Positions 23,301 through 38,765 of a stretch of DNA of 64,000 bases are shown here, in pieces. The notes under the pieces are model-generated. The model was not told the DNA's origin, made no database searches, and saw only the letters and a list, made by a program, of their open reading frames with translations. The stretch spans positions 62,001 through 126,000 of the forward strand of contig JAUIGE010000021.1 of NCBI GenBank assembly GCA_030430205.1. The letters run 5' to 3'. Each line of letters opens with the position of its first letter. The stretch's first letter is position 1. The stretch is from Bacteroidia bacterium (GTDB lineage Bacteria > Bacteroidota > Bacteroidia > J057). The position numbers were made by a program, and so were the translations under genes.

Positions 23301-25295
23301 TCTGCTGACAGCAGTTTTGATGCATCACAGGATGTGCAGCTTGTCAGCCGGGGCAATCTGAAAGCCCTGGATAAGGGCGAAAGCTATAGCCAGGTAAGAA
23401 CCTTCACGGTTCCCAACGGCATCTCGGGAGATTATTATCTCTTTTTGCTGGCAGATGCGCTGCAGGCTGTCCCCGAAGGCCAGCGCGCCAACAACCTCGC
23501 CTTGCTACGCAAGGCCAATGGCGCTGCCCGCAGCATCCATATTCGCCTTTCTCCCTCGCCAGATCTGGCGATCAAAAGCCTTCAAAACCCCCTTACCGGC
23601 ACAGCCGGCCAGCCGGTCGACATTCTGTGGACAGTCAAAAATGAAGGCGCAGCCGCCACCACCGGCACAGGCTGGATAGACAGGTTTTACCTTTCAGGCG
23701 ACTCTATCTGGGACAGTTCGGATTTGCTGATTGGCGGAAAAACCCATCTGGGCAATCTTCAGCCCGGACAGAGCTATAGCGATAGTGTAAGTCTCAATTT
23801 GCCAACCTCTGCGCAGGGAAATTATTACCTGATGGCCCGGGTGGACTATCGGGATGATGTATACGAGCATCAGGCAGAAGCCAATAACCAGGCCCTTCGC
23901 CTGATCACGGTAGATCAGCCCCTGCCGATCGATCTGGTCGTAACACAGGTGCTTGCACCTGACAGCGCCTTCCTGGGAGAAGAACTGACCATCGAATGGG
24001 ATGTGCTCAACCAGGGGATGAATCCTGCAAATGCTTTTATGACGGAAGCTGTCTATCTGTCAGCAGACACCCTTTGGGACCCGGGCGATGCCCTGCTGGG
24101 TACCATCCGGAGGCAGTTGAACCTGCCATCTCAGGCAACTACAAGACGTAGCCTCACAGCACTGTTGAAGATCAGTTCGCTTCAGGACTACCATGTGATC
24201 GTTCGGACAGACATCACCAACCGCTTTGTAGAACTGGACGAAACCAACAATACAGGCTTCAGGCAGGAGCTGATGGGCCTCCGCGCCCACGAGCTGCCGC
24301 TCGGCATCTGGCAGCGGGATACCCTTGCAGACCGCAGCGAGCTATACTACCGTATTCATATCCCTGACTCGCTTGTCGGCGAGGATATGTTGGTAGAATT
24401 ACTCGGCGATGCGAATATCGGCCAGGCAGAATTGTACCTCCGCTATGCCGATCTGCCCAGCCAGGCCGTGCAGGACTACGCTTCCCTGACACCTTACGTC
24501 AATCGTCAGGAAATCATCATTAGCTCCGTTCAGAAAGGCGATTACTACTTGATGGGCTTCGCCGATAATATGGGTCGCAGCAGCCAGCCGATCGAGCTAC
24601 GCGCGATGATCCTGCCCTTCGAAGTGCGGGAAGTAGACGCCAAACAGGGCGGCAATACGGGTTCTGTCACCATCAGGATCAAAGGTTCCCAATTCCAGTC
24701 ATACACGGATTTTGCGCTTCAGGACAGCGGCAGGACCCTCCTGGCAAGCCAGGTCTACTACTTGAGCCGTGTCGAAGTCTTCGCGACCTTCAACCTGCGG
24801 GGCGCAGCCCTGGGCGACTACGATGTAGTCGCGATCAACTCGCCGGGCGACAGCGCCCGGCTGGTCGACGGCTTTGCCGTCGTGACGGGATCGCTGGGCG
24901 CCGGCCTGGGACAGGGCGGCAGCGTGGGGAGTGGGACGGGCGGCCTGGGGGCCGCGGGGATTACTTGCAGTATTCAGAATGTGGGGATGAATAAGAATTT
25001 GAAGGTGTGGATCACCGGGCCGGGCCAGGTGCGGGATCGCCGACAAGTGGCCATCACCATTCATTTCCGAAATGAAGGAAATGTAGATCTGCCTGTGTTA
25101 AACAGGCCATTTATCAGCATTGGAGGTGCGCCTTTGGCGCATACTGCGCCGGAGTTGAAGCTGGATTTGCAGCAGATTCTGATTGAGATGAAAGAAGACG
25201 GCGGCCCGCCGGGGGTGCTGAGACCGGGGGCTCAGGGGACGATTACGGTCTATTCGCTGGGTATTCGTGAACTTGATTTTGTGCTATTACTCTAA
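14391..25295 (+). CDS. Giant secreted protein: four beta-helix modules, eight CARDB repeats, PPC/IPT-like end
   Basis: The 3634-residue protein opens with a signal peptide (MKSVTVILGGIIFSLFMGSF). Four modules of about 540 residues each start with a Y-T-[IVL]-G-G-x-x-PD motif (nt ~14481, 16110, 17730, 19350). Each continues as a right-handed parallel beta-helix and closes with DIDGExR-DIGADEF plus a CARDB-like segment. After an Fn3-like linker (~20950-21250) come eight CARDB-type repeats, each starting DLxVxxxxxP-x(4)-SG and containing WTVKNxG (21255-24270). A prepeptidase-C-terminal-like domain and an IPT-like domain follow, then a Gly-rich hinge (GSLGAGLGQGG) and a final beta domain. No T9SS tail is visible. 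It is probably a surface adhesin or cell-wall-length scaffold. The Rhs gene follows by 28 bases. Confidence 0.85.
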   Translation: MKSVTVILGGIIFSLFMGSFQLQAKSPPPIMAGTYTIGGTNPDYATFTAAVSALTSQGISGAVVFDVRNGTYNEQISIDTISGASPANTITFRSESRDSSLVTLAFACTTSTDNFVLRLFGADYMRFEHLTIQATGSIYFRAVQLAQGASYNVFTHCRFSVPSASGSSFAQNVFSSFNGQSAAENDNYNTLSHNRFENGTHGLLVFGYGVNAGEREMGWQVINNVFVNSAYRAMYFHLQENCQIKGNTLECTNTTNAALYLTNCYDSVAIEQNIIDAPGANVNGIQISTSQTDTLSKIRIVNNFITAGYRGIYAFAVDRLSILHNSVVMVGNQAASMALLVDNTADCRILNNVLVNYASGYAIYLIGYLGPGFEVDYNNLYTNGNNFGRAGQLYTDFLSWQSNTAFDSHSFSLDPGFSSPPNLHTLFPALSGAASSLPDVTVDIDGENRSNPPDIGADEFSLMGSNAALVAFLHPQPPFAAGNYPLQAIIENRGSDSLVNYQMNWSLNGVSQTPILRAGPLPANQRDTILLLNQLLMGGSIYQLDGWVSLATNQTDIFPQNDSLTSSLFAPQMAGSYTLGGSSPDFADFNSVVQALQVGGIADTTTIFVRPGTYNEQFRLEAIDGVSCQTPLIFEGESGDSSDVIITFDSNFSDNYVCLIKGLSGLSFRYLTFESTDITYTRVISLEDTTDCLSWENCHLIAPSKNATGNSLIVFYYNNGYHSGIHFVKNRVENGSIGMNLTQQHFDGQYHIVGNTFINQYQGGIETLNGGTYFLAENYITTNKTYSAYQAIYLRTPRKKAIVEKNKIIQENGVGIYVISSFRPVHIQNNFVSVLGTANNEGIFLDNVDSVYLYHNNVLMKNSGVATLALWVKDARSRVKISGNIFVNEGPGRLFITESLQNLELFDNNAYYGPGNELFCLGNPILTSTFLTYGDLPAWQQASNLDSASLFVNPEFYSDSNLHVQKAALNATGKAGLGIVDDIDGELRNSPPDIGADEFMPTGMDVQLVELILPQAPFVAGTYPLSAVVRNHGTQPLSNLQIVFEVNGATPDTFAWSTSLAVGQQDTLTFANQLFNPLVRYDFKVWTQQPNGQQDVITNDDSLEKRDVWVSLAGGYTVGGTSPDLPDISTMSSVLSAAGIIDTVWFNIRTGTYTEQVTFNAYPGMSCETPVYIQSESGDKADVIWQYGSGSNNNFRARLDGVSGLVFRNLTIQTTNSYGRVIEISNGSHCNQFINNHLIGWNINNATDRFAVIYSPAGSGPKEGDTANVFMNNHIQHGSYGMIMAGYNQANPERGTRIIGNYFDNTRYRAAALNYQESIEVRDNIFETNNNSQNGRAISLYQNTGAPVIIRNKVNMPRGFGITLEDIQTAVGDTGLIANNMIYIEGTQNAKGIYIDGSRQKVLYNSVWITSTDAADGRAFELFNGQGIILKNNILVNTGTGYAIYVACNKGLESDYNDLYATGTNWGYDCGAVADLAAWQMGGRDAHSISIDPDFVSVTDLHVKATGLNRSGIPFPEVLDDIDRELRDPQNPDIGADEFTPPLRNEAALQALFVPQRPFAAGSYPLSIAIRNGGTDTLRSLRIDWEVDGVAQTSFNWSGSLPTAASDTFAFGTYQFVAGVNSQITAWLSLPNGTPDSLNVNDTLRSRDLFVALAGVYTVGGNNPDFLNFSITAENLSKGGLLDSVVFRVRDSVYHESFSLAAVAESSPANFVRYEAERGDSAQVIIRYGGAAGAVLLIDGMAHLQLRHLTFERINGTGNDLHALQLKGGINALHVHGCQFVGLPTTDNTAEKATIFLDETNHKGLYFTQNEIFYGSYGFRAETFSNSPSDSLLFWGNSFDNQALYALYVKYYNSVELVGNIVRNGVLSQANYTGLYLFQCHGKSFLEANQVLAPGGRYGIWLRTMSGPDGRVINNFVQTGGSGIGTGIYVEDLFNQKIAHNSVLYQGNSLTDGAACRVVSGNNNNFVNNIFANTGGGYAIRVDGSGSYAYTRNNDLFATGNYLGRWLTTDMADLNAWQTGTGRDIGSISVDPLFIAPHDPHVLQVQLDSAGIFASYVRTDIDGENRNAGYPDIGADEFDVFFKDLSLEAVLSPKTGCGLSSTETVTINIANPAVQAVDSFQIGYVLDSLPAVVEWVYTRIQPAQQKLISFQTTADLSRLGVHHLDVFVMLPGDQFLGNDSLRGIQLNNLPLGGAISNLLPPDSTLGLSSPLTFSWNPAANASNYDFYLWKASDPKPTQPTDSNIFATSYLYTGNLVGNEHFKWQVLPNNACAQQQASPELNFFTPLLPDLVIDTIILPLTAFSGQSITIGWSIKNIGQASTGTAFWSDEIWLSVDTVLNLFTNTFEIYLGTVGRPAALAPGQSYSQTATFSLPQTAIGPYHVFVRTAKRQVVRESIYTNNIDFSPDTIDIQLTPPPDLQVSQVIAPQTVFSGDKVNLNWTVKNEGTGPTLSGDWYDEVYLSQASFLDTRTATRLGRFRIRRNLDADSSYQQFRQITLPNGIYGVHYLHVLTDADNDEFEYVLEQNNEGSSDSMTIVLSPPIDLVVDSVWTADSVSTREMVTVFWRVKNQGAADVTSPFVDQIYLSTLPDSNLNAANKVGSLTNGVVIPAGGSLVKSRLVTMPDAPDGPYYFYVKTDDKNQVYEYVFENNNIGRTLGPVEVLAPDLQVVDFELPDSAVSNQNTSIGWTLFNAGPGKVYNRSWKDEVMISRHPVFDPDSTALLGRVNRYGLIQKGDSLAWQQAFRLPNGLSGDYYVYVRTDYGSAIFEGQGETNNLARSVGTIYIDLPQWPDLQLVQKQLPASIMAGDSLQMQFEVKNAGQGDIFGKRWTDKLYVQLDTLFNAKDAYLLKTASRAISLAADSSYIFTYDAAFPRIHQLKGGQGLDSAQLYLFFQIDATNAIYEHTGEADNLWRSDSIFVKEAERPDLVLSAATFGPDSLWSGQQTSIHWTVENAGKSTRFWKTNSWLDHVYLSADSSFDASQDVQLVSRGNLKALDKGESYSQVRTFTVPNGISGDYYLFLLADALQAVPEGQRANNLALLRKANGAARSIHIRLSPSPDLAIKSLQNPLTGTAGQPVDILWTVKNEGAAATTGTGWIDRFYLSGDSIWDSSDLLIGGKTHLGNLQPGQSYSDSVSLNLPTSAQGNYYLMARVDYRDDVYEHQAEANNQALRLITVDQPLPIDLVVTQVLAPDSAFLGEELTIEWDVLNQGMNPANAFMTEAVYLSADTLWDPGDALLGTIRRQLNLPSQATTRRSLTALLKISSLQDYHVIVRTDITNRFVELDETNNTGFRQELMGLRAHELPLGIWQRDTLADRSELYYRIHIPDSLVGEDMLVELLGDANIGQAELYLRYADLPSQAVQDYASLTPYVNRQEIIISSVQKGDYYLMGFADNMGRSSQPIELRAMILPFEVREVDAKQGGNTGSVTIRIKGSQFQSYTDFALQDSGRTLLASQVYYLSRVEVFATFNLRGAALGDYDVVAINSPGDSARLVDGFAVVTGSLGAGLGQGGSVGSGTGGLGAAGITCSIQNVGMNKNLKVWITGPGQVRDRRQVAITIHFRNEGNVDLPVLNRPFISIGGAPLAHTAPELKLDLQQILIEMKEDGGPPGVLRPGAQGTITVYSLGIRELDFVLLL

Positions 25296-25323
25296 AACCA
25301 AACTATCTCAAACGACCACAATC

Positions 25324-28300
25324 ATGAAAAAAATAATTATATATAAACCTCTCATTGCCATTTTATGGGTGCTGTTATTGGGCGCTCAGATGCAGGCGAA
25401 TAATGTGACCCGCCCCAACATTAGCTTTTATGGAGGGCTGGCTGTCAACAGTTATTCTGGAAATCTTTTCTTTCAACGAAATGATCTAAAGCTTGCGGGT
25501 TCAGGGCCATCCGTTGATTTGACCTTTGCTTTTAATAGCTCACACAGACATGATGATCAAGGTTTTGGATTAGGTTGGACATTCAGTCATAATATGTACT
25601 ATTTCCCGGACAGCCAGGGAGTCTGGCTTTCTATGTCAACGGGAAAGCGTCATCTATTTGTTGAAAATGCAGGGGCCTATGCAGCTCCTCCCGGAGTATT
25701 TGACTGTTTTGAAACCTATGGGCCTGGCTTATGGCGATTAAGCACCCCTTCAGGTATGATCTATTATTTCGAAGATAGTACCCACAAGCACCTGACCAGA
25801 ATCAAGGACCCCAGTGGAAACGAAGTTTCTCTTAGTTATCAAAATGGAAAAGTCACAGAAATCGTCAATGCCACAGGTCGAAAAATTCGTTTTGTTTGGC
25901 AAAATAACCACCTGCTTCGGGTTCAGGATATCAGCAGTTTACCTGCCCGGAACTGGGAATATTCATATAGCAATTCCGGACAGCTCCTTTCCGTTAAGAA
26001 TCCGCTTGCACATATTCAAAATTATGGCTACGATCAGGATGGGAAATTGATTTCCATTCGCTTATATGATGATAATCAGTTGTTTATCGGATACCATAAA
26101 GGGGAGGTGGTAGCAGAAATCGCTTCCTGTGATTTTCATGATTATTTCACCTATGAAAGAGAAGCCAACAAGACTTTTCACATCAAGGAAACGGATGATG
26201 GGAGCATCATAGATACCTATGTATTTGATGAAGATGGGAATTTGATTCAGAAGAAAGGGAGTTGCTGTGGTTATGATATGGGATATACCTATGATGGGGA
26301 CCTGAATATTACGGAGATTGTGAATGGGGAGGGGAAGGTGGTGAGTTATTCTTTTGATGCTTTGGGGAATCGGACTTCTACCACAGATCCATCGGGGAAT
26401 ACTTCATTTACGACTTATGTTTCCGGCACGACACGGATCGCTTCCATTCAGGACAGAAGGGGAAATACCAAAGCGTTTACCTACGATTCGGATGGAAATG
26501 TTGTGCGTATAGACTATCCTCTGGGTATCCAGGAAAATTTCAGCTATGATAGCAGGGGCTTATTGAAAAGCCATACTGACGGGGAAGGAAATACCCGATA
26601 TTTTGAATATGATAGTTTAGGAAATTTGCTTTGTGTCAAAGCACCTTTGGGGGTTAGCATGAGGCGGATTTATGATACAAGGGGGAATAAAATTGAAGAG
26701 ATTGATGCAAGGGGGCATTCCGTTTATTATGAATATGATTTGCTTGATAGGCTTATCAAATTAACAGATCACTTAGGGTATAGTTACCGCTATCGATATG
26801 ATAGTAATGGTCGTTTGTTAAGTGAAATCAATCCCTTGGGAGATAGTGTCAACTATACCTATGATCCTCTTGGGCGACTATTGGCAGAGAGCTATCCCCA
26901 GGGGGTGACTTATCGCTTTAAATACAATAAACGTGGCAATCTGATTGCCAGAATAGATCCTATGGGGAGAGAATGGCGATATCGCTACAACAGCCGCAAT
27001 CAAAAGGTAGCAGAAATCGATCCTTTGGGAAATACAACCAGGTTTGCTTACAATGGGATAGGCAAACAAATCAATGAAATTGATCCTTTGGGCAATGTTT
27101 CTTCATTTGTTTACGATGATGCTGGCCGGCAAATTCAAAGCACGAATTCGGTTGGGGAACTTTTTCAATCTTCTTTCAATGAAGTAGGGCAGAAAATAAG
27201 CACAACTGACCCATTAGGAAATATTACGCAGTTTGAATATGACGCCCTGGGGCGATTAATCAAAAAGACCGATCCTTTGGGTAATGTTAGCCATACTTTT
27301 TATAATAAAAATCACAAACCCATCATCAAACTGGATCCCTTAGGAAGAAAAACAGAGTATCTGTATGATTCTCTTATGCGGGTTGTTGCGATTATCGATC
27401 CTGCAGGAGATTCGGTAAGGTTCAAATATGATAAGATGGATAATCTTATTGCCTGGATTTTGCCAAATGGTGATAGTACCTCATGGGAATATAATGAACA
27501 GGATCTTCCCATTATTGAGAGGAATATGCAGGGCTATGAAACAAAGGCTTTTTACAATCCTCTTCAGTGGCAAGTCAGATCAGAAACTGCCGGCGGAAAT
27601 AGAAAGCACTATGTCTACGATAAACTTGGTCGATTGATTGAGATGAGGGATACCCTGGGGGTATTGGAAAAAAGGTCTTATGACCTAAATGGCAATCTTA
27701 TTCAGCAGGAAACACAATGGGGGCAAGTATATACCTACTCTTATGATGTGTTAAATCGGAAGGTTCGGATGATTGATCCCGAAGGAGAGGAGCAACGCTA
27801 TATGTATGACGCTTTGGGTAAGATTATTGCCATTATTGATAGAAGAGGAAACAGCCAACAGTTTTCTTATGATTCAGAAGGTCGGGTTCTTGAAGAAATA
27901 GATGAACTGGGGAATAAAGTATCTTATTCCTACAACACAAGAGGAGAAATCAGCCAAATTGTTGACCCATCAGGCAGATCTACCAGATTTAATTACGACG
28001 CTGCCGGAAGGAAAATTTCAGAAGTATTGCCTGATAACAGCCAGGCAATATTTAGTTATGATGTCGCTGGACAACTGAGCTCAACTACAACAAGGAACGG
28101 CCAAAAAATTCAATTTGATTATGATTTAAAAGGACAATTAATTAAGAAAAGCTATCCAAATAATAGGGAAGATTTTTTCCAATATGATCAAAACGGTAGC
28201 CTGATTTCTGCTATAAACCCATGGGCTACTGTAAGCTACACTTATGATGAATTAGGAAGAAAGAAATCAGAAAGTTGTAGGAATAAAACAACAAACATTG

Positions 28301-30336
28301 ATTTTGGGGCAGGTACCAGAAGTACAGAGATAATTTACCCCAGCGGAAGAAAAATAGTAGAAAACTCAGATATAAGAGGAAGGCTTGAAAATATTCAGGA
28401 AGGGGCAAATACCCTCGCCAGCTTTACCTATAATCAAAATGATCGACCGACCTCTATCGTTTTTGGGAATGGATTGGAGGAAAAAATTTCTTACAATAAT
28501 TTTACTAAAATCCGTGAAATTGAGCAGGATTCTCTATTCACACTCAAATACGATTATGATTCGGAAGGCTATATTCTTTCAGAAGAAAACCTTCGGTGGG
28601 GGGCTTTCTCCAGAACTTTTTCTTATGACCCATCAGGCAGTATAACCGCTGCTAAACGTGGAACCATAACTAATGGTCAAATCAACCTTCCTACTGATAC
28701 CTGGCAATACAGCCACGATGCAAATGGTAATCGAACCCATTCTCAGTTCAATGGCGCGAGCACCAGTTATCAGGTTGATTTTAAAAATGCATATACACGT
28801 GTTGGTACCCAAAATATGAGTCTTGATATGCAGGGAAATTTGCTCAACGATGGTACTTACCAGTATGATTATGATGCAGATAATAAACTCATAGAGGTTA
28901 AACAAAGCGGAAATAGCCTGATTTCCTATCGGTATGATGCATTGGGGAGACGCACCCAAAGAATGAGTCCGACAGATACGGTTTATTATTATTATTGCCT
29001 GAATGAAATCATAGAAGAGCGGGATGCACGGGATAGTGTTATTGCTACTTACGTATATGGAATTGGGATTGATGACATCATTCAAGCTGAAATTCAAGGA
29101 CAAAACTACTATTACCATAGAGACTGGCAGGGTTCAGTAAGAGCGATATCAAACGATCAGGGCCAGGCTGTTGAATATTATGAATACGATCCTTTTGGAA
29201 AGCAATCTGTCTTCAATGCGCAGCATCAGCAGATAGTTTCCAGTCAGATAGGTAATCCCTACGGATTTACAGGTCGTCGCCATGAATCAGGAAGCCATCT
29301 GATTTATTACAGAAGCAGAACCTATCATGCAGATTTGGGAAGGTTTCTTCAACCAGACCCTGCGGGTTATATCGATGGCCCCAACATGTACCGCTATGCG
29401 TTAAATTCACCCACCAACCACCGGGATCCTTTCGGCCTTTTTATTGATAATTTCCCCGAAGGATTTAATGTAAAAGAATGGTGGGATAATCTCTTCAAGT
29501 TAAGGTTTGCCCCTTCGGTGAGCCTGGAAGGATTGAGTGTGACGTTCTTATCCATTCCTTTGGGGCCAGGCATCTTTTCTATAACAGCAGCCCTCCATGG
29601 TACCATAGGCCCCTGTTGTGACCCTTATTATAATGAAATAAATGTGGATGTAAATGCCGGATTTAGCATTGGGGTTGAATATGCGTTAGGGTTAGGGCAG
29701 GATTTCAGGGAAAAGAAAGACGCTCTGGATCAAATAAAGAAGGCAAGGAAAAAAAAGGAACATAATGATAGAGATGACATCAAAAGGGAGTTAAGGAGGG
29801 AAAAGTATCAGGGAGATCACAATGAGTTACAGAAGAAAATCCAGGACCTGGACACAGAACATCCCAATCTGGGGAAAAAGGATCGAAGGCAAAAAATCAA
29901 CAAACTGAAAAGAGAACAATTTTGGGACAAGGTTGATAATATTTATGATGAAGCCAATCCAAATAAGGCATTTAAAGAGTATATGGAAGATTTCAAAAAA
30001 AATAATGTAAAGAGTGATGTAGAACTCTATGCAGATATAGATATTTTGGCAGTAGACCTGCCCACATGTCCAATAGTCCAGGATTACCTTTTAGATTGGT
30101 CTGGCAGTTTTCGACTGGATCTTGATTTTACTGCAGGATTTGCCGGGTTTGGAGCTGAACTAAAACTTTCTGCCACTTTTGATGCCAATGAGCCATTTTA
30201 CTTTAAACGAAGTGCCACATTTAATTATGGTTTGATCAGTTATGTCGGACTTAAAGTAGCACTATCTGCAACAGGGAGGTTTAATATTCGAGGTGTATAT
30301 GCATCCAGGATTAAGCCTGGAACCTTCCCCTTTTAA
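25324..30336 (+). CDS. Rhs/YD-repeat protein with uncharacterised C-terminal region
   Basis: The start is the ATG at 25324 (MKKIIIYKPLIAILWVLLL, signal peptide), not the in-frame upstream codon; length 1670 residues. An N-terminal beta domain (SGNLFFQRNDLKL ... GFGLGWTFSHN) precedes about thirty YD repeats of the form YDxxGRLI / DPLGN. The repeat cage ends with the Rhs core signature RSRTYHADLGRFLQPDPAGYIDGPNMYRYALNSP (read in parts), then DPFGL near residue 1370. The last ~300 residues are unlike known Rhs toxins to my eye: a WW-containing start, a highly charged Lys/Glu coiled segment, then a beta-rich tail. No immunity-like gene follows. The gene is visibly AT-richer than both neighbours. 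Confidence 0.88.
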   Translation: MKKIIIYKPLIAILWVLLLGAQMQANNVTRPNISFYGGLAVNSYSGNLFFQRNDLKLAGSGPSVDLTFAFNSSHRHDDQGFGLGWTFSHNMYYFPDSQGVWLSMSTGKRHLFVENAGAYAAPPGVFDCFETYGPGLWRLSTPSGMIYYFEDSTHKHLTRIKDPSGNEVSLSYQNGKVTEIVNATGRKIRFVWQNNHLLRVQDISSLPARNWEYSYSNSGQLLSVKNPLAHIQNYGYDQDGKLISIRLYDDNQLFIGYHKGEVVAEIASCDFHDYFTYEREANKTFHIKETDDGSIIDTYVFDEDGNLIQKKGSCCGYDMGYTYDGDLNITEIVNGEGKVVSYSFDALGNRTSTTDPSGNTSFTTYVSGTTRIASIQDRRGNTKAFTYDSDGNVVRIDYPLGIQENFSYDSRGLLKSHTDGEGNTRYFEYDSLGNLLCVKAPLGVSMRRIYDTRGNKIEEIDARGHSVYYEYDLLDRLIKLTDHLGYSYRYRYDSNGRLLSEINPLGDSVNYTYDPLGRLLAESYPQGVTYRFKYNKRGNLIARIDPMGREWRYRYNSRNQKVAEIDPLGNTTRFAYNGIGKQINEIDPLGNVSSFVYDDAGRQIQSTNSVGELFQSSFNEVGQKISTTDPLGNITQFEYDALGRLIKKTDPLGNVSHTFYNKNHKPIIKLDPLGRKTEYLYDSLMRVVAIIDPAGDSVRFKYDKMDNLIAWILPNGDSTSWEYNEQDLPIIERNMQGYETKAFYNPLQWQVRSETAGGNRKHYVYDKLGRLIEMRDTLGVLEKRSYDLNGNLIQQETQWGQVYTYSYDVLNRKVRMIDPEGEEQRYMYDALGKIIAIIDRRGNSQQFSYDSEGRVLEEIDELGNKVSYSYNTRGEISQIVDPSGRSTRFNYDAAGRKISEVLPDNSQAIFSYDVAGQLSSTTTRNGQKIQFDYDLKGQLIKKSYPNNREDFFQYDQNGSLISAINPWATVSYTYDELGRKKSESCRNKTTNIDFGAGTRSTEIIYPSGRKIVENSDIRGRLENIQEGANTLASFTYNQNDRPTSIVFGNGLEEKISYNNFTKIREIEQDSLFTLKYDYDSEGYILSEENLRWGAFSRTFSYDPSGSITAAKRGTITNGQINLPTDTWQYSHDANGNRTHSQFNGASTSYQVDFKNAYTRVGTQNMSLDMQGNLLNDGTYQYDYDADNKLIEVKQSGNSLISYRYDALGRRTQRMSPTDTVYYYYCLNEIIEERDARDSVIATYVYGIGIDDIIQAEIQGQNYYYHRDWQGSVRAISNDQGQAVEYYEYDPFGKQSVFNAQHQQIVSSQIGNPYGFTGRRHESGSHLIYYRSRTYHADLGRFLQPDPAGYIDGPNMYRYALNSPTNHRDPFGLFIDNFPEGFNVKEWWDNLFKLRFAPSVSLEGLSVTFLSIPLGPGIFSITAALHGTIGPCCDPYYNEINVDVNAGFSIGVEYALGLGQDFREKKDALDQIKKARKKKEHNDRDDIKRELRREKYQGDHNELQKKIQDLDTEHPNLGKKDRRQKINKLKREQFWDKVDNIYDEANPNKAFKEYMEDFKKNNVKSDVELYADIDILAVDLPTCPIVQDYLLDWSGSFRLDLDFTAGFAGFGAELKLSATFDANEPFYFKRSATFNYGLISYVGLKVALSATGRFNIRGVYASRIKPGTFPF

Positions 30337-32408: not shown

Positions 32409-33905
32409 TCACCAGAATTTCCACCAGGGCTTCTGTGCCTTTTTCTCACGCGCGAGGCGCTCGGCTTCCCGGGCTCTTTGTGCCTGAGAAGGGTGGCGGA
32501 TTTCATGACGAAAGACATGTGTGAACAATAATTGTTCTGTGCGTTGAATGAACTGTGCACCTTTCGTCGGATCTACCATGGCTACGTAGTGTGCGAAACC
32601 GCGAACCGTTGCCAGGAGGTGAGGACTCTGATTCCAGTGCTTGCCTTGCAGGCCATCTTTTTCCAATTGGAAAAGGAGCGCCCTAAAACGCCTGAGCGTT
32701 TTGCGGTCAAGGCTAAGTTTGTCATTCACAACGATGCCCGTTACTTCCTGCCTTTCTCCCATGCGCATGATCCGCTCCTTTTCAGGATGAATGGTAAAGC
32801 CCTCATCTTCAACAATTTTTTTAGCCTGCCAAAGCATTTTTTGGATGGCAGCTTCTCCTTTTTCCTTTGACGAAAAAGTCAGATCATCTGCATATCGCGT
32901 ATAGGCAAATCCATGTAATTGCGCTGCGCCTCGCAGTCGTTTATCCATGCGAATGCAGAGGATATTACTCAGGGCCGGACTGCTGGGCGCACCCTGGGGC
33001 AAGTGCCGTTCGGAAGCCATGAGGTGAAATGTTTCCCCATTTACCTCAACAAGCTCGACTTCCGCTTCTGTGCAAATCAAAGCAAGGATAATGGCAATTT
33101 GCTCAGAATACCCCATGGACCGAAAAAGGCCCTTTATGCGCGGGAAAGTAATGCCTGGAAAAAAATCTTTCAGGTCGAGATTGATGACCACTGATGCTCC
33201 TACATGAGGCCTGGCATTGGTAACGATAGACTTTCCTGGTACAAAACCATGAGCATCCGGATGCAAAGGAACCTGGTAAAGAATATGTTGGAGAATCCAG
33301 TTTTGCACATTCTTTAATCTGGGCATGGGTGCTGAAATCTGGCGATGCCCTCCACGTTTTTTCGGAATCAGAAAACGCTTGTAATGATTGATTTTGCTTA
33401 CCTTTCTTTGAAAGGCAAGAAATCGCAATTCCCCAACACTTATGCCCATTTGTTGAGCCAGAGATTTTACGTCTTTAAAAACAGGGAGCTTTTTCTCCTG
33501 TAGTTTCCCTTCCTGAAAATCCTGTTGATGTAAACCTGCTGAAACATCTTCCCCCAAATAGAGGATTTCGGTTTCTTTTCGCTTCTTCCAGGCTTCTGCT
33601 TTCGCAAGTTTTTCTGTTTCTCGTTTTCTTTTAAGTTCCAGCCTTTTGGCTTTGGAAGCTTGCATCCGCTCCTTGCGGATTTTGTTGAGCAGCCGGGCTT
33701 TATCCTTATATAGTTTATCCTGTTTGTTGAGTGCCTTTAGTTCCTGGATCAGCTCTTTCTCCCGTTCAATTATTTCTTCCACAACACCTGGACGATCCTT
33801 GTTTTTAGGCCAAAAACCGAGACGCTGCATTTCATTCAGGATGAAAGACTCCCTGGAGGAGGCGGCGATTCTGGCTAATATGGCTGTGCGGCGCAGGGAA
33901 GACAT
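32409..33905 (-). CDS. Retron reverse transcriptase
   Basis: The 498-residue protein has a long N-terminal extension (1-145) that is strongly charged and probably coiled-coil, then a reverse transcriptase core. Visible RT motifs are HRQISAP (187-193), the retron region-X motif NAxxH (NARPH, 230-234), LDLKDFFP (243-250), QGAPSSP (304-310), the catalytic YADD (338-341) and the retron region-Y motif VTG (388-390). NAxxH plus VTG separates retron RTs from group II intron and DGR enzymes. The structured RNA lies directly upstream, as in known retrons. It should prime from that RNA to make the msDNA. Its stop abuts the stop of the converging gene with no gap. Confidence 0.95.
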   Translation of the reverse strand: MSSLRRTAILARIAASSRESFILNEMQRLGFWPKNKDRPGVVEEIIEREKELIQELKALNKQDKLYKDKARLLNKIRKERMQASKAKRLELKRKRETEKLAKAEAWKKRKETEILYLGEDVSAGLHQQDFQEGKLQEKKLPVFKDVKSLAQQMGISVGELRFLAFQRKVSKINHYKRFLIPKKRGGHRQISAPMPRLKNVQNWILQHILYQVPLHPDAHGFVPGKSIVTNARPHVGASVVINLDLKDFFPGITFPRIKGLFRSMGYSEQIAIILALICTEAEVELVEVNGETFHLMASERHLPQGAPSSPALSNILCIRMDKRLRGAAQLHGFAYTRYADDLTFSSKEKGEAAIQKMLWQAKKIVEDEGFTIHPEKERIMRMGERQEVTGIVVNDKLSLDRKTLRRFRALLFQLEKDGLQGKHWNQSPHLLATVRGFAHYVAMVDPTKGAQFIQRTEQLLFTHVFRHEIRHPSQAQRAREAERLAREKKAQKPWWKFW

Positions 33906-33952
33906 GGAGAATTTTCTGTTTGTTTTACAGTAGGTGTTTTACAGGAGAAAAA

Positions 33953-34186
33953 GAAAAGAGGAGGGCCGGACGAATCCCTTCGTACATGCTGAGGACTGGT
34001 TCAGTCAACTCAAGCGGCCCGCATAGTATACGCTATTTCACATCTCCGATGTGACACCGGAAATGGCGTATACTATGATGGGCCGCACCGTGAAGACTGC
34101 GCCAGTGAAGCGTTAGTAGTCTGTAAGCAGGGACGGCGATCCACCGCCCAAAATGCAAGGTACATGCCCGGCCACTCCTCTCTTCC
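33953..34186 (-). ncRNA. Retron msr-msd non-coding RNA
   Basis: Read on the minus strand, the 234-nt segment starts with a1 (34186-34168) and ends with a2 (33969-33953). All 17 bases of a2 pair with a1, with one G-U pair and one unpaired base in a1. The msr half holds small hairpins: GGGCGG closing with CCG-T-CCC near 34150-34131, and AGACT/AGTCT around an inner CGC/GCG (about 34122-34092). The msd half holds a long hairpin at 34086-34014 with a 7-bp base (GCGGCCC/GGGCCGC), an 11-bp stem (ATAGTATACGC/GCGTATACTAT) and a 6-bp tip (CACATC-GGA-GATGTG), then hairpins TGAG-TT-GACTG/CAGTC-CTCA and ACGAA-GGGA-TTCGT. The order and position are those of a retron RNA. The priming guanosine is not assigned. 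Confidence 0.9.
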
Positions 34187-34227: not shown

Positions 34228-35862
34228 TTAGCTGAGATAATGCATCCGCAGGGCTAAGATATGGGCGCAAGGCCCTTTTCGCAATTTATTTTGTTGATAA
34301 TGGTTGCAGAGACATGAAGCCTGGGTGATGCGGGTATCTGCGTCCATTTGGATCATGGTCGAAAAAGCTTTGCCATCGATTTTCACGCTTCCGGATATGC
34401 GCACAAGCTCATTCCTTTCTGGTTCCTGTGAATGAATACTGATATTTCCTTCTCTCAATAGGCGACTGGCCATTTCTTCCTGCTTGCTTGCAAAGCGCAA
34501 AGCATCTATCGGCAAAGGATCTTTGCTTAATTCGCGCAAGCGATAAAGCCCTTTGTTCAGGTCATAGACCACCCGCCCGGCCTGGGTATAGGCTGTTAAG
34601 CAACTGCTCACAATATCTTCATCAAGTCCGAGAGAAAGTCCGAGGCTTTCTGATGAGGAGAATTGTTTGGCTTTTAAAGCCTGGAAAACCCGCGAATGGG
34701 TGGCCTCATCTGTTTGCAGCCGTGCTGCCAAAAGGTCGAAATGTGAACCCTGAGACCAGTTGTTGGCCGTCCAACCCGAGAGCCCCAGGGTAAATATCAT
34801 GTCTCCTAAATCCGCTTCAAAGAAGGAAGGCATACCTGAGCTCAGGAGTGTTACCGTGATAGATTTGGCAAGGGGAATTAATCTTTCCAAAACCAAGAGC
34901 CTTCTCCTTCCCCAAAGTCGAATGCTTCTTTCACTTTCCCCTTCGTAAACGGATTTCCAGCAGATTATTTTATGTTCCCAGGGTTCAAATACGATCGACA
35001 CCGGCTGTCCGGGCTTGAGTTCAAATCGCATGGAACGAGGACTCTTTTTTGCCTGATTTTGTCGTAAAAACTGGCAAATATTGAACAAATCCATGGGATT
35101 CAGCTGGAAGCGGATATGCGGCAGGGTCATGGCCGTGCTTACCTGGAGAAAGCCTCTCACCCAGCTTTCCGGCAGATCAATTTTTACCTCTTTATAGTGA
35201 TCTTCATCTGTTGTTTGGACTTCAAAACCACTGGGATCTATTCTGAAATCTGTCTCTTTATAGTCCCGGATTTTTTGAAATTCATGATAGAGTGATTGCG
35301 AGTAATCTACATTCGTAGTCCCGTAGGCAAACTCGCTGATGTTGTCAAAAACCTCATATCCGCAGCTAAGTTTGCCATAAGTAGATTCATCCTGGCTAAA
35401 ACACTCAAAAAATACTTCATCTGGATGAACCGTGATAACGGGATCTAGCACATACCAGCTGTCCATGTCAACTTTTTGCAAATAGTCGAAATAACGCGAT
35501 TGGGCATGGTAGAAAGGCTGCATGATTTGGGCCCGCTGATTACGGAGCATGTCCAGCTCTTTTTGAATCACTTCTATTTTTTCGCCGACCTTCTCTGCTC
35601 CTGCCATCTCGCGGTTGAGCCAAACTTCCTCCTGCTGCGCAAGCCAGGCCTTGTAGGCCGTCGTGTCGCGTGGCTTCCAGCGCAAGTCAGATGAAACGAC
35701 CGCATGAAGGGCAGAGATAGCTTCCCTAAAAGGAATCTTCTTATTCAACTGCCCCACGAAGAAAGTAGGTTCCCGATAGGTATCGGGGGAGAAGTGCATA
35801 CCGGTGGCCCGGGACGAACTCCTGACCTCACTTTTTCCTGCATATCGGTAATTAAATTCCAT
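34228..35862 (-). CDS. SWIM zinc-finger protein of the retron system
   Basis: A 544-residue protein ending in a SWIM-type zinc finger, CxC-x(12)-CxH: Cys517, Cys519, Cys532 and His534 (CLC ... CAH). The region before it contains a possible winged-helix-like part (SSSESLGLSLGLDEDIVSSCLTAY, then LNKGLYRLREL), consistent with the WHSWIM label used for one partner of type XIII retrons. The remaining ~350 residues are of unknown fold. I chose the ATG at 35862, two bases after the stop of the upstream gene; a TTG at 35880 would overlap that gene. The retron RNA starts about 40 bases downstream. SWIM fingers bind DNA or protein; the role as effector or regulator is inference from context. Confidence 0.88.
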   Translation of the reverse strand: MEFNYRYAGKSEVRSSSRATGMHFSPDTYREPTFFVGQLNKKIPFREAISALHAVVSSDLRWKPRDTTAYKAWLAQQEEVWLNREMAGAEKVGEKIEVIQKELDMLRNQRAQIMQPFYHAQSRYFDYLQKVDMDSWYVLDPVITVHPDEVFFECFSQDESTYGKLSCGYEVFDNISEFAYGTTNVDYSQSLYHEFQKIRDYKETDFRIDPSGFEVQTTDEDHYKEVKIDLPESWVRGFLQVSTAMTLPHIRFQLNPMDLFNICQFLRQNQAKKSPRSMRFELKPGQPVSIVFEPWEHKIICWKSVYEGESERSIRLWGRRRLLVLERLIPLAKSITVTLLSSGMPSFFEADLGDMIFTLGLSGWTANNWSQGSHFDLLAARLQTDEATHSRVFQALKAKQFSSSESLGLSLGLDEDIVSSCLTAYTQAGRVVYDLNKGLYRLRELSKDPLPIDALRFASKQEEMASRLLREGNISIHSQEPERNELVRISGSVKIDGKAFSTMIQMDADTRITQASCLCNHYQQNKLRKGPCAHILALRMHYLS

Positions 35863-35864
35863 AC

Positions 35865-38765
35865 TTAGTGTCTTTTCCAAATGCTTACAGGCTGGGTATT
35901 CCAGACTTTATCGAGATGCGGAAACTGCTTATAAATGGCCATTAAGAGCAGCAAATATTCACTTTTATCTCCCTTGCTGGCGGTTCCCAACAGGCGATCC
36001 ATGATTTGATGCACAATCATGGCTGCCTCCGGGCTGTTTGTGGCCTGCTTTTTTAGAAAAGCAAGGACCCGCACTTTTGCCGCCCGATTTTGGTTAACCG
36101 TTGAAAGAACGGTAATAAAAAAAGGCTTGAGCGATTCGAGTCGATCTATATGCTGATCCGCGTAGCGGTCCAGAAAATTGCTGGCAAAAAGCTGCATAGC
36201 CGGCGCAGGATGCTCGCTGAGTTTGAGCAGATACTCGGGTCCATCTTTTTCCTCGAAAAAGTGCGTGATCATTTTCTGGCCAAACGCCTGTACTTCAGGC
36301 CTTACGCTATCACACAGGCTTATTAAAAGATCTGTGGTCCAATCTTTGGCTTCAAATTCTTTTTGGAAAAAGTCAAAAGCAAACTGTTGGGTATCAGGCC
36401 AATCTGTGTCAAGGATATTCAGCGCAATTTCACGCTCGTATTTGATTCGGGCGACATGATTTCGAAAATAAGCCTGGCAAAACTGTCTTAAACTCAGGAG
36501 CTCATGTTTTCCAAAAGCAATGATCTGCTCCATGCTTTGGCTGGAGATATCCAGGTTTTCGATTAAATAGGTAGCTCCTATTTCCTGCGAAGAGCTATAG
36601 GCTAGCTCCAGCAGCTGGAAGGCAAGCCTTTTGGCTTCAGGGCTTTTCTCTGCCAGCAAGCTGGCGGTTAATTCCTGCGCACTGGCGCGTATTTCCGCTT
36701 CCTCAGCTTCGCAAAGCTGCAACAGCAATGTCTGTTTGGTGGCCAGTTGCGCTTTGTCCAGTTTGCTGAAAAGGCGAATCCCCCATACCCTGAGTGCTGA
36801 AGAGTCCGACCCTAACAGGCTTTGAAAGATGCTTTCAGGAAGGGAGGAAGCAGGGATATCTGTATGGATCAGGATACTGGCTCCCAGAATCTTTAATTTT
36901 TCATCATCCCGGTCAAGGAATTGCTGAATAAGTTCGAGGGAAATGTGGGATAGCGCTTTATCGAAAATTGCTTTTAGACTTTCTATGATGAGAGAGGGTT
37001 CCTCATTTCCCCTAAACTCAAGCAATACTTTTTGAAAAAGTCTTTCACAGATCGAAATCGCCCGCTTATCTGAGAAAATCTGATCAGCAAGGCTATCCCT
37101 GAGCCAGCTGTGAAGGGCTGCTTCAGGAAGGAGCAATAAATCAATAAGGAAATCGTCATCTGAAAAATAGGCTTGAGGCTCCTCGTTTACCCATGCTCTG
37201 GCCTGAAGCCAGGCCGCTTCAAGTTGACAAGACATCATGGCCAGGACGAGTTCGGTAGAGGGCTGATCAGGCCGATATATCCTTTTTGCGAAGCCCAAGG
37301 CCAGTTCCTGTATGTCTGCGAAGCTGCTTGCAAATAATGCCTTAACATTTGTCAGTGTCAGTAAACTATCCAGTGCAGGATTGGCCAGGATCGCCTTGGT
37401 TGCAAAGGCATGAACCTGCGCAGCCTTGGCTTTTTGAAGCAATTGCATCAGGATGTCTCCTGCCTGATCCCATAGTTCAGGGAAGGCTTCTTCCCTTTCG
37501 GGAGGAGGTTCTGCACCCGGGATATATCCCTCTGTACATATCCAGGCTGTTTGTTGAGCATTCAATTCATAGCGCGAACTATGAGCAAACAGGATATAAA
37601 AAAAACTGAGGTATCGTGCATTTTTGTCAAAATGAATCCGTTGAGTATGGGGCGTAAACCGCCTGCTGGACTGATCAAATGAATAGCTAAGCCGCTCGAT
37701 GACATCTGGTTTTTGTGCATCTAACTCATCATCAAAGCTGAGCAAAAGATGGCTGGCAAGCTGAACATAATTGGGGTCTGCCGCTCCACCCAGCCTTTCA
37801 AGCTTTCTGATCAATCGCCGAAGCAAATAACTTCTGGTTCGCTTACCATATGCCCGAGGCGCATTTTCTGTCTTCAGGTCTGCCGCCCGCTCCAGCTTAT
37901 GGGCTATCAATGCCCAAAAGGGGGCATCATCCTGCCATTCAGCCAATTTGAAAATATACCTGAAACTTGTCCTGTAGGGAGGGGATTGGAGGGATAATTC
38001 GCTCAATAGCTCATAGAGTCCCAAAGCGTATTCTTCCTTTCTGTCTTTAAGTAAATACCTGATAAGCAATGCCTGGGGATGAGGCTGTTGGCTAAGTATC
38101 TGCTTTTGTGAAAAGATAGAAAGCTGAGAGCTCAGCTGATCCTCAATGGCTTTCCGGATGTCTTCCCTGCCAGTCTTTAAGAGCGCCGCCGATGCAAGCC
38201 TGTGAATATGAGAAGGAAGTCCCGGATCATCTTTCCATTTTAGGTAAAAAGCTTCTGCTTGTTGGGACGCTAACCTGCTCAGGGTCCATATCAGGCTATA
38301 AATCAAGGTTTCGTCAACCGTTGAGCAAAGTTGCAGCAATGCTTTTTCCGCAGACTGCAATTTCAATTCTCCTGCCCGCCAAACAACCCTCGAAAGCGAC
38401 CAATCGCTTTTCATTTCTTCGCCATGTATGGCAGCGTTTAAGCGTTTTAGAATAGCCTTTTCACGCGCATCTTCTCCCTCTTTTGCGGGGAACAAAGTTT
38501 CTCCTTGTGAGGAAGTATTGCTTTCAGGTAATTCTCTATAGCCTTTTTGACTTTTCTCCCTGAGTAAGGTCGTGAAAATGCGATCAGCTTTTTCTTTGCT
38601 TACGGGTAAGGGGGTTTTGGTGCCTTCCCGAAGCGTTAAACCCCTTCTTCCAAATCTAAAATTTACGATAAACTGATCTTCCCCTACCTTATATTGCTCT
38701 ATTATATAGACTTTGTCTGAGTTTTCAGTTTGATAATAAAGTGATATGGATTGGGTTATTTTCAC
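35865..38765 (-). CDS. WGR-domain and HEAT/ARM-like repeat protein of the retron system
   Basis: The 966-residue protein begins with a WGR domain (about 1-80: YYQTENSDKVYIIEQY, then FRFGRRGLTLREGTK with FGRRG at 38-42 in the place of WGRxG). The rest is almost entirely short amphipathic helix pairs (for example LRVWGIRLFSKLDKAQLATKQ, ILGASILIHTDIP), as in HEAT/ARM solenoids. It starts with GTG at 38765; no in-frame ATG is nearby. WGR domains occur in PARPs and in bacterial defence and DNA-repair proteins, where they sense nucleic acid ends. Being first in the operon with the SWIM protein, RNA and RT, it matches the ARM partner of type XIII retrons. Confidence 0.87.
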   Translation of the reverse strand: MKITQSISLYYQTENSDKVYIIEQYKVGEDQFIVNFRFGRRGLTLREGTKTPLPVSKEKADRIFTTLLREKSQKGYRELPESNTSSQGETLFPAKEGEDAREKAILKRLNAAIHGEEMKSDWSLSRVVWRAGELKLQSAEKALLQLCSTVDETLIYSLIWTLSRLASQQAEAFYLKWKDDPGLPSHIHRLASAALLKTGREDIRKAIEDQLSSQLSIFSQKQILSQQPHPQALLIRYLLKDRKEEYALGLYELLSELSLQSPPYRTSFRYIFKLAEWQDDAPFWALIAHKLERAADLKTENAPRAYGKRTRSYLLRRLIRKLERLGGAADPNYVQLASHLLLSFDDELDAQKPDVIERLSYSFDQSSRRFTPHTQRIHFDKNARYLSFFYILFAHSSRYELNAQQTAWICTEGYIPGAEPPPEREEAFPELWDQAGDILMQLLQKAKAAQVHAFATKAILANPALDSLLTLTNVKALFASSFADIQELALGFAKRIYRPDQPSTELVLAMMSCQLEAAWLQARAWVNEEPQAYFSDDDFLIDLLLLPEAALHSWLRDSLADQIFSDKRAISICERLFQKVLLEFRGNEEPSLIIESLKAIFDKALSHISLELIQQFLDRDDEKLKILGASILIHTDIPASSLPESIFQSLLGSDSSALRVWGIRLFSKLDKAQLATKQTLLLQLCEAEEAEIRASAQELTASLLAEKSPEAKRLAFQLLELAYSSSQEIGATYLIENLDISSQSMEQIIAFGKHELLSLRQFCQAYFRNHVARIKYEREIALNILDTDWPDTQQFAFDFFQKEFEAKDWTTDLLISLCDSVRPEVQAFGQKMITHFFEEKDGPEYLLKLSEHPAPAMQLFASNFLDRYADQHIDRLESLKPFFITVLSTVNQNRAAKVRVLAFLKKQATNSPEAAMIVHQIMDRLLGTASKGDKSEYLLLLMAIYKQFPHLDKVWNTQPVSIWKRH

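What the first reader, a model, noticed from the sequence alone, without database searches (positions are those of the whole stretch)
33953..34186. Retron RNA with a 17-bp a1/a2 duplex and an 18-bp-plus msd hairpin, with no inspection-level ambiguity
All 17 bases of a2 pair with a1 (one wobble, one bulged base), and the order a1, msr hairpins, msd hairpin, a2, RT is exact for a retron. The msd tip (CACATC-GGA-GATGTG) and an asymmetric bulge in the middle of the stem are the likely places recognised by the partner proteins. The sequence GCATGTAC appears just after a1 and again before a2 as a direct repeat, which is not a standard retron feature.
Basis: seen in the sequence. Interest (0 to 1): 0.8.

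Follow-up and report, generated by a model that had tools for sequence, protein, structure and literature searches.

The report
Type XIII retron with clamp-like partner
This stretch encodes the RNA from which a bacterial anti-virus element (a retron) is expected to copy a small piece of DNA; the element is of a known type, but one of its partner proteins is predicted to have the shape of the ring-forming clamps that hold DNA polymerases on DNA, which sequence searches do not show.

Summary
On the minus strand (34186-33952) lies an RNA with the described a1/a2 duplex, an msr hairpin, a long msd hairpin, then the RT gene. It folds far better than shuffles (z -9.4). A covariance model of its core gives 95 matches over 86 sources, and covariation is strong: 379 double-change cells against 125 in shuffles. 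RT, SWIM and WGR proteins hit PADLOC's type XIII retron models at E 8e-188 to 2e-257: a new member of a known kind. The GCATGTAC direct repeat is real but occurs as a pair in 1 of 92 copies: chance.

In close groups the distal msd stem changes faster than the rest of the RNA core while staying paired. Fourteen of 85 loci carry 2-4 RNAs, and in five cyanobacterial genomes the RT lies far from RNA and partners. Mechanism is inferred.

The parts
34166..34186 (-). a1, outer arm of the a1/a2 duplex (12 + 8 bp, U34174 bulged)
   Evidence: flank duplex 0 of 2000 shuffles as strong
34157..34160 (-). a1 inner arm CCUU, pairs in the family consensus with AAGG 33980-33977
   Evidence: conserved 3 pairs formed in 92 of 92 copies with compensatory changes; the window's own minimum keeps only CCU/AGG
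34156..34156 (-). predicted priming (branching) guanosine, directly 3' of the a1/a2 duplex, in UUGC
   Evidence: G in 92 of 92 copies; position rule for retrons from PMC6868368 passages; inferred, no msDNA data
34131..34149 (-). msr hairpin GGGCGGTGGATCGCCGTCC
   Evidence: helix 3 of the consensus, 98.9% of cells paired, 5 of 7 pairs with changes on both sides
34095..34106 (-). 5' arm of basal helix (ACTGG, CAGTC), pairs with 34006-33995
   Evidence: helix 5, 93.6% paired, 9 of 11 pairs with double changes; window pairs
34014..34086 (-). msd hairpin (lower stem 34086-34080/34020-34014; distal stem 34077-34066/34033-34022)
   Evidence: helix 7, 80.6% paired, 17 of 17 pairs with double changes
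34054..34064 (-). conserved ATTTCCGGTGT: stem continuation (ATTTC) and one-sided bulge
   Evidence: alignment A4, helix 8; identical in L038, one base different in L087
34039..34053 (-). msd tip hairpin CACATC-GGA-GATGTG
   Evidence: helix 9, 92.6% paired, 5 of 5 pairs with double changes
33995..34006 (-). 3' arm of basal helix
33977..33982 (-). conserved CGAAGG: presumed template start and a2 inner arm
   Evidence: CGAAG in 81 of 92 copies; role inferred
33952..33971 (-). a2, outer arm
32409..33905 (-). retron reverse transcriptase, 498 aa; YADD, NAxxH and VTG motifs intact (motif names recalled)
   Evidence: RT_XIII E 8e-188; RVT_1; invariant columns among 6 sequences of A2
34228..35880 (-). 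SWIM_XIII partner: PCNA-like clamp fold (residues 34-367, with a coiled-coil insertion), wHTH-like part, SWIM zinc finger
   Evidence: SWIM_XIII E 1.6e-228; SWIM Pfam; AlphaFold2 model; Foldseek and VIA-align; zinc ligands 66 of 66
35865..38765 (-). WGR_XIII partner: N-terminal WGR domain and long HEAT-like solenoid, 966 aa
   Evidence: WGR_XIII E 2e-257; WGR Pfam; model pLDDT 89.4; general HEAT-type PDB matches

Best explanation
It is the msr-msd RNA of a type XIII retron, in the order WGR-HEAT gene, SWIM gene, RNA, RT gene, all on the minus strand. The RT recognises the folded RNA, primes from the 2'-OH of G34156 at the inner end of the a1/a2 duplex, and copies the strand from about G33981 through the msd hairpin into a branched msDNA. 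RT, msDNA and the two partner proteins are expected to form one complex that keeps the effector part silent until a phage product disturbs it, as reported for other retron types. Shown here: RNA fold and its covariation, gene content, intact RT motifs, predicted fold of the SWIM protein. Inferred: priming site, msDNA, complex, phage defence. Most likely division of labour (inferred): WGR-HEAT is the scaffold that reads the msDNA end or bulge, and the clamp-like SWIM protein is the DNA-acting part that on release interferes with replication.
For: PADLOC RT_XIII 623 bits against 343 for the next RT model, SWIM_XIII and WGR_XIII matched. Compensatory changes in 46 of 57 pairs, 88.2% of cells paired against 66.8% in shuffles. 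The core model has one match in the own genome, at this place (150 of 970 first-look candidates scored). A match upstream of the RT in 59 of 61 loci that hold an RT. a1 binds its own a2 at -21.6 kcal/mol on average against -10.5 for others' a2, in 80 distinct copies. Anatomy as in the general description of retrons (PMC6868368, passages).
Against: No transcript or msDNA data. The priming context is UUGC, not the AGC named in PMC6868368; only the 3 Nannocystis copies have UAGC. The window's own RNA minimum pairs the predicted priming G. Two small helices of the consensus are weak: helix 4 (73.1% paired) and helix 6 (no pair with a change on both sides). L025, a diverged locus, has RT and SWIM but no match to the RNA model even without filters; L095, whose RT is cut by the contig end, has none either. 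The cognate a2 is the best partner of its a1 in only 32 of 80 copies (top three in 51). No enzyme was found by Pfam in either partner, so the effector step is open. Against the DNA-acting role: the clamp part has a net negative charge (-7 in the window, mean -3.8).
Confidence: 0.9

Rival explanations
1. The locus is a decayed retron: the RNA and RT are remnants that no longer make msDNA.
For: No further defence gene was recognised in the window, but only 15 of its ORFs were scanned by Pfam and 5 by PADLOC.
Against: All three reading frames are open and match their models nearly end to end or, for WGR, over its first 720 residues; YADD, NAxxH and VTG are intact; the RNA scores 165 bits, 13th of 95.
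Confidence: 0.05
2. The structure is a terminator, attenuator or other regulatory RNA between the SWIM and RT genes, not a template.
For: It lies between two genes of one operon. In 16 loci where no RT was found the RNA still follows SWIM (or stands at the WGR-SWIM pair). Several relatives have T-rich stretches after a2 (sequences).
Against: In 13 loci with the order RT-WGR-SWIM the RNA is in front of the RT, not after SWIM. The invariant G next to the inner a1/a2 helix and the long msd hairpin are retron features. No Rfam family matches the window.
Confidence: 0.03
3. The GCATGTAC direct repeat is a functional element, for example for template switching or trimming of the cDNA.
For: An 8-base word shared exactly between the a1 loop and the template start, as stated; in the window's own RNA minimum the second copy takes part in a helix next to a1.
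Against: The pair is in 1 of 92 copies; some shared word of 8 or more between the two regions is in 5 of 92. L038 and L087, which share the window's tip, keep only GTGTAC in the second place.
Confidence: 0.03

Closest known systems
Type XIII retron (PADLOC models RT_XIII, SWIM_XIII, WGR_XIII/HEAT-ARM_XIII; classification of Mestre et al. 2020, paper not held, recalled)
   Same: All three proteins, RT in the right clade by HMM score, RNA upstream of the RT.
   Different: No difference in gene content was found. RNA consensus, priming context UUGC and clamp fold are described here; whether the RNA was described before could not be checked.
Retron-Eco1 (Ec86) and other classical retrons
   Same: a1/a2 duplex, msr hairpin(s), long msd hairpin, G at the inner end of a1/a2 (general description in PMC6868368, passages seen).
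   Different: UUGC instead of AGC around the predicted priming G; two partner proteins of other families.
MoxR-vWA-beta-propeller ternary system (Kaur et al. 2020, PMC7159879, passages seen)
   Same: In L027 a WGR-DUF6493 protein and a SWIM protein related to SWIM_XIII (E 3e-66) stand directly beside bpMoxR, bpX0, bpX1, bpX2 and bpX4.
   Different: No RT by tblastn in L026-L028; the retron RNA was not sought there. No MoxR among the window ORFs scanned. SWIM and WGR do not occur in the main text of that paper (0 occurrences).
PCNA / sliding clamps
   Same: Predicted fold of SWIM residues 34-367 covers a complete PCNA monomer, both domains: Z 18.8, rmsd 2.8, 232 of 244 residues of 2izo_B.
   Different: 7-13% identity, no clamp found by sequence in the PDB up to E 1; a coiled-coil insertion (about 60-140), and wHTH and SWIM parts after the clamp. 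Ring formation untested.

Membership tests
Retron | Reverse transcriptase of the retron group with intact catalytic motif | tested here: met
   RT_XIII E 8e-188, 623 bits; YADD, NAxxH, VTG columns invariant in A2, 6 sequences
Retron | a1/a2 inverted repeat flanking the RNA, kept by compensatory change | tested here: met
Retron | msr hairpin(s) followed by a long msd hairpin | tested here: met
Retron | Conserved guanosine at the inner end of the a1/a2 duplex (commonly, not always, in AGC) | tested here: met
   G in 92 of 92 copies; context is UUGC here, UAGC in 3 copies; that it primes is not shown
Retron | Production of branched RNA-DNA (msDNA) | not testable with these tools
   needs nucleic acid from cells
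Type XIII retron | RT of the type XIII clade | tested here: met
   best PADLOC model by 280 bits; no tree was built
Type XIII retron | Associated WGR/HEAT and SWIM genes | tested here: met
Type XIII retron | Match to a published type XIII msr-msd covariance model | not tested
   PADLOC says that it holds msr-msd models (PMC9252829 passages); they are not among the tools; no Rfam family matches the window
Sliding clamp (PCNA) | Two-domain clamp fold | tested here: met
   predicted structure only:
Sliding clamp (PCNA) | Sequence-detectable homology to PCNA | tested here: not met
   profile of 66 SWIM proteins against the PDB sequences: no clamp up to E 1; so it is called clamp-like, not a PCNA
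Sliding clamp (PCNA) | Closed ring around DNA | not testable with these tools
   no complex prediction. Conserved basic residues on the helices that by order match the channel helices (R46, K197, R199, K202, R315, R319-321, R327) are compatible with it; the net negative charge of the clamp part (-7, family mean -3.8) does not help it
MoxR-vWA-beta-propeller ternary system | bpMoxR and bpX genes beside the WGR/SWIM pair | tested here: inconclusive
   present in L027; none among 15 window ORFs scanned, other ORFs not scanned

The most novel reading that the evidence does not exclude
Type XIII is a clamp retron. The SWIM partner forms a PCNA-like ring or part-ring that holds double-stranded DNA. 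At rest it sits on the msd stem of the msDNA, which explains why about 10-12 bp of that stem must be paired but may have nearly any sequence, while the bulge, tip and foot are kept for RT and WGR-HEAT. When a phage protein takes the msDNA away or changes it, the clamp is freed for replicating DNA or for the phage's own clamp partners and stops replication. Tandem RNAs with different stems, and RNAs served by an RT elsewhere in the genome, would then be several baits for one shared clamp effector, which also works under MoxR control in the beta-propeller ternary systems.
Probability: 0.2. Interest if true: 0.85.

Novelty: new member of a known kind. Interest (0 to 1): 0.55.

Why it matters
The element itself adds one well-resolved example to a known type for which no study of mechanism came up in my searches. 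The clamp-like fold of its SWIM partner, if confirmed, gives a concrete idea of what the type XIII partner could act on, links retrons to the MoxR ternary conflict systems through a shared protein pair, and makes the effector question testable. The RNA consensus, with a working covariance model, lets RNAs, tandem arrays and split loci be found in other genomes.

Tried and rejected
Rfam search of the whole window: no family at gathering score. Viral contigs with SWIM: no pattern match with one sequence; 25 candidates but none confirmed with the alignment. Plasmids: 6 records with SWIM relatives, 1 near full length (Methylobacterium bullatum); not followed.

First, crude a1/a2 search in the 600 bases before the RT: 37 of 60 regions gave a repeat of the right spacing. 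Two of these (L039, L090) were msd arms taken for a1/a2. A third (L033, 11812-12050), which I also put into alignment A3, is not among the model's matches; by eye it may be a further, weaker copy. An anchor search by motif missed others. Both were superseded by the covariance model, which was built from A4, without L033.

Direct repeat as an element: rejected. L025 as a source of a diverged RNA: nothing found.

Word enrichment in the distal stems (TACTA in 27 of 79 non-redundant arms against 3.2 expected from shuffled arms; 3 of 66 control segments): real in the counts, but related species are not independent and some 'arms' run into the bulge (85 of 92 copies could be cut), so no site is claimed. 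Faster change of the distal stem (1.6 to 14.3 times the rest of the core in 10 groups that I chose) is not proof of positive selection: a stem free in sequence could drift this way, and copies may be homogenised elsewhere.

Papers: Mestre et al. 2020 is not held. Searches for type XIII retrons found no study of mechanism: (25 of 61 papers listed). Two papers turned up: PMC11953036, which names a type XIII retron found by PADLOC (passage seen), and PMC10653932 (listing only). PMC12548924 has no mention of XIII, SWIM or WGR in its main text. Searches for retron with PCNA or sliding clamp, and SWIM with sliding clamp: listings only, nothing on point by title and abstract start. SWIM, MoxR, WGR and conflict systems: listing only. 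Tandem or multiple retron RNAs: listing only, nothing on point. No claim is made that these things are unpublished beyond those searches.

Full report
What is there. The window lies on contig 13 of a 7.24-Mb genome in 80 contigs. On the minus strand stand, in order, a 966-aa WGR-HEAT gene (38765-35865), a 550-aa SWIM gene (35880-34228), the RNA (34186-33952) and a 498-aa reverse transcriptase (33905-32409). The three proteins hit PADLOC's WGR_XIII (2e-257), SWIM_XIII (1.6e-228) and RT_XIII (8e-188, 623 bits; next RT model 343 bits). Pfam adds WGR, SWIM and RVT_1. The RT keeps YADD, NAxxH and VTG (motif names recalled; columns invariant among six sequences).

The RNA. It folds at -122.6 kcal/mol against -78.4 +/- 4.7 in 200 shuffles. 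Helices in window coordinates are listed. The a1/a2 duplex is 12 + 8 bp with one bulged U, then a 5/5 internal loop, then CCUU/AAGG by the family consensus (the window's own minimum keeps CCU/AGG and pairs the next bases differently). After CCUU comes a G (34156). In the 92 complete copies of the family this G never changes and the three conserved inner pairs always form, with exchanges on both sides in several (CUU/AAG, UUU/AAA, CUA/UAG). In the description of retrons that I could read, the inner end of that duplex contains, or ends directly 5' of, the priming G, commonly in AGC (PMC6868368, passages). So G34156 is my predicted priming site, in the unusual context UUGC; the three Nannocystis copies have UAGC.

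Family evidence. From 27 RNA cores I built model R1. On that alignment 88.2% of cells pair (66.8% in shuffles, 37.8-45.5% when slid), 46 of 57 pairs have changes on both sides, and 379 cells have double changes against 125. The alignment was made by sequence (MAFFT), but the structure was derived from it, so the slid control leans towards it, as the tool says. Helices 4 and 6 are weak. R1 found 95 matches over 86 sources; 92 complete ones were used in what follows (three cut by contig ends dropped).

Place of the RNA. Of 85 loci tallied (window, 5 fetched, 79 of the 80 scanned; L045 dropped because it repeats L021), 75 have a match. Of the 61 with an RT in the locus, 59 have the RNA upstream of it: 46 in the order WGR-SWIM-RNA-RT, 13 as RNA-RT-WGR-SWIM (L023 is labelled 'other' there because its RNA overlaps the early start that I gave its RT). 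In 16 further loci there is an RNA but no RT, partly because contigs end; there the RNA stands with WGR-SWIM. The two RT loci without a match are L025 and L095.

Direct repeat. GCATGTAC twice is confirmed, but occurs as a pair in 1 of 92 copies, the window's own. The second copy overlaps the common TACGAAG (47 of 92). I take the pair as chance.

The msd hairpin in detail. The foot of the hairpin, ATTTCCGGT bulge and tip are largely kept in close relatives (L038 and L087 share the window's tip exactly), while the 10-12 bp distal stem differs on both arms and stays paired. In ten groups that I chose, the distal stem differs 1.6 to 14.3 times as much as the rest of the core; in L093's two tandem copies 13 of 58 positions against 2 of 128. 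All 17 pairs of this helix have double changes, with 80.6% of cells paired. Whether this is selection for difference or freedom of sequence is open.

Tandem and split loci. Fourteen of 85 loci hold 2-4 RNAs, for example four in L081 about 256 bases apart, each with its own a1/a2 (own a2 ranks first or second for each of the four among 80). The window has one, and no other was found in its genome. In five cyanobacterial loci with about 9 kb on both sides there is no RT match (L032, L034, L040, L075, L096). Their genomes each have a near full-length RT_XIII elsewhere (model positions about 5-437 of 469): on the same contig 1.1-1.2 Mb from the RNA in two (L034's and L096's genomes), on another contig in three. 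In Calothrix parasitica NIES-267 (L034) the RNAs are at 1.858 and 1.864 Mb and the RT at 3.055 Mb, with no RNA match beside the RT. L096 itself has no RNA match; the one in its genome is about 36 kb away.

The partner proteins. An AlphaFold2 model of SWIM from 66 aligned relatives has mean pLDDT 75.8 and pTM 0.66. The 50 PDB matches shown by Foldseek are PCNA-type clamps, some in clamp-loader complexes (E 1e-9 to 4e-8). VIA-align gives Z 18.8, rmsd 2.8 over 232 of 244 residues of 2izo_B and Z 18.6 for human PCNA, model residues 34-367. The part about 59-139 is an insertion of long helices with lower confidence. The same profile finds no clamp in PDB sequences up to E 1, so the likeness is one of fold. 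By order of elements, a conserved helix (232-244, with invariant W234, V235, R236, G237) stands where PCNA has its interdomain connector, and conserved basic residues lie on or beside the helices that would line the channel; the clamp part as a whole is acidic (-7; family mean -3.8) (assignment is mine, PCNA layout recalled, coordinates not available). After the clamp come a wHTH-like part and a SWIM zinc finger whose C-C-C-H ligands are kept in 66 of 66. WGR-HEAT is a confident solenoid (pLDDT 89.4) with only general HEAT-type matches.

A related system. SWIM_XIII also matches shorter SWIM proteins (about 440 aa) over positions 104-502. In L027 such a protein stands beside a WGR-DUF6493 protein and bpMoxR, bpX0, bpX1, bpX2, bpX4, the genes of the MoxR-vWA-beta-propeller ternary systems. 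The pair thus seems to serve under two different controllers.

How it probably works. Shown: RNA structure, gene content, intact RT. Reported for other retrons: RT with msDNA senses the phage and holds the effector until then (for type IX, PMC13405049, passages). Inferred: the clamp-like SWIM protein is the DNA-acting part and WGR-HEAT the scaffold. The bolder reading, that the clamp rests on the msd stem, would explain a stem that must pair but need not keep its sequence; I give it 0.2.

Verdict. The most surprising part is the clamp-like partner, which rests on a predicted structure and needs an experiment.

Noticed in passing
L081 10741-11694; L066 5114-6355; L090 3451-4152; L033 10730-11743; also L030, L034, L036, L040, L041, L048, L067, L074, L093, L104: Two to four retron RNAs in one type XIII locus, mostly in tandem, with different msd stems.
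   Followed up: partly
L034, L032, L040, L075, L096; RTs in L112-L116 (regions L119, L121-L124): Cyanobacterial type XIII loci without an RT match within about 9 kb; a near full-length RT_XIII lies elsewhere in the same genome (Calothrix NIES-267: 1.2 Mb away).
   Followed up: partly
L059 11493-13183; L120 7707-9529; L124 5010-5711: A ribonuclease III-like gene directly before the RT in some cyanobacteria, in L059 and L120 with a NYN-like gene before it (named by eye from the translations; no family search).
   Followed up: no
L027 1181-10655, L026 1897-6344: WGR-DUF6493 and SWIM proteins related to the retron partners, in L027 beside the genes of a MoxR-vWA-beta-propeller ternary system.
   Followed up: partly
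L052, L058, L068, L070, L071, L077, L092, L097, L101, L109, msd hairpins: In Chitinophaga-type copies the stretch after the msd bulge (GTAC or GTAG ... GCCCC) could pair instead with the lower msd stem (GGGGC.TAC), and seems to change with it: a possible two-state msd (by eye, sequences).
   Followed up: no
msd distal arms of 79 non-redundant copies: Words TACTA, GTACTA, TACTAT and GTAC are over-represented against shuffled arms; relatedness not controlled.
   Followed up: partly
   Followed up: partly
G000 contig 31, 30149-30586 (L002, L029): A second, short RT match in the own genome (76 bits, 166-aa frame); no SWIM or WGR match in the 12 kb around it.
   Followed up: no
window 25267-30336 and 14391-25295: Very long ORFs; the first shows RHS/YD-type repeats in its translation (by eye; no family search).
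   Followed up: no
NZ_LR743510.1 342394-344007 (Methylobacterium bullatum): A near full-length SWIM_XIII relative (49% identity) on a record of the plasmid collection.
   Followed up: no
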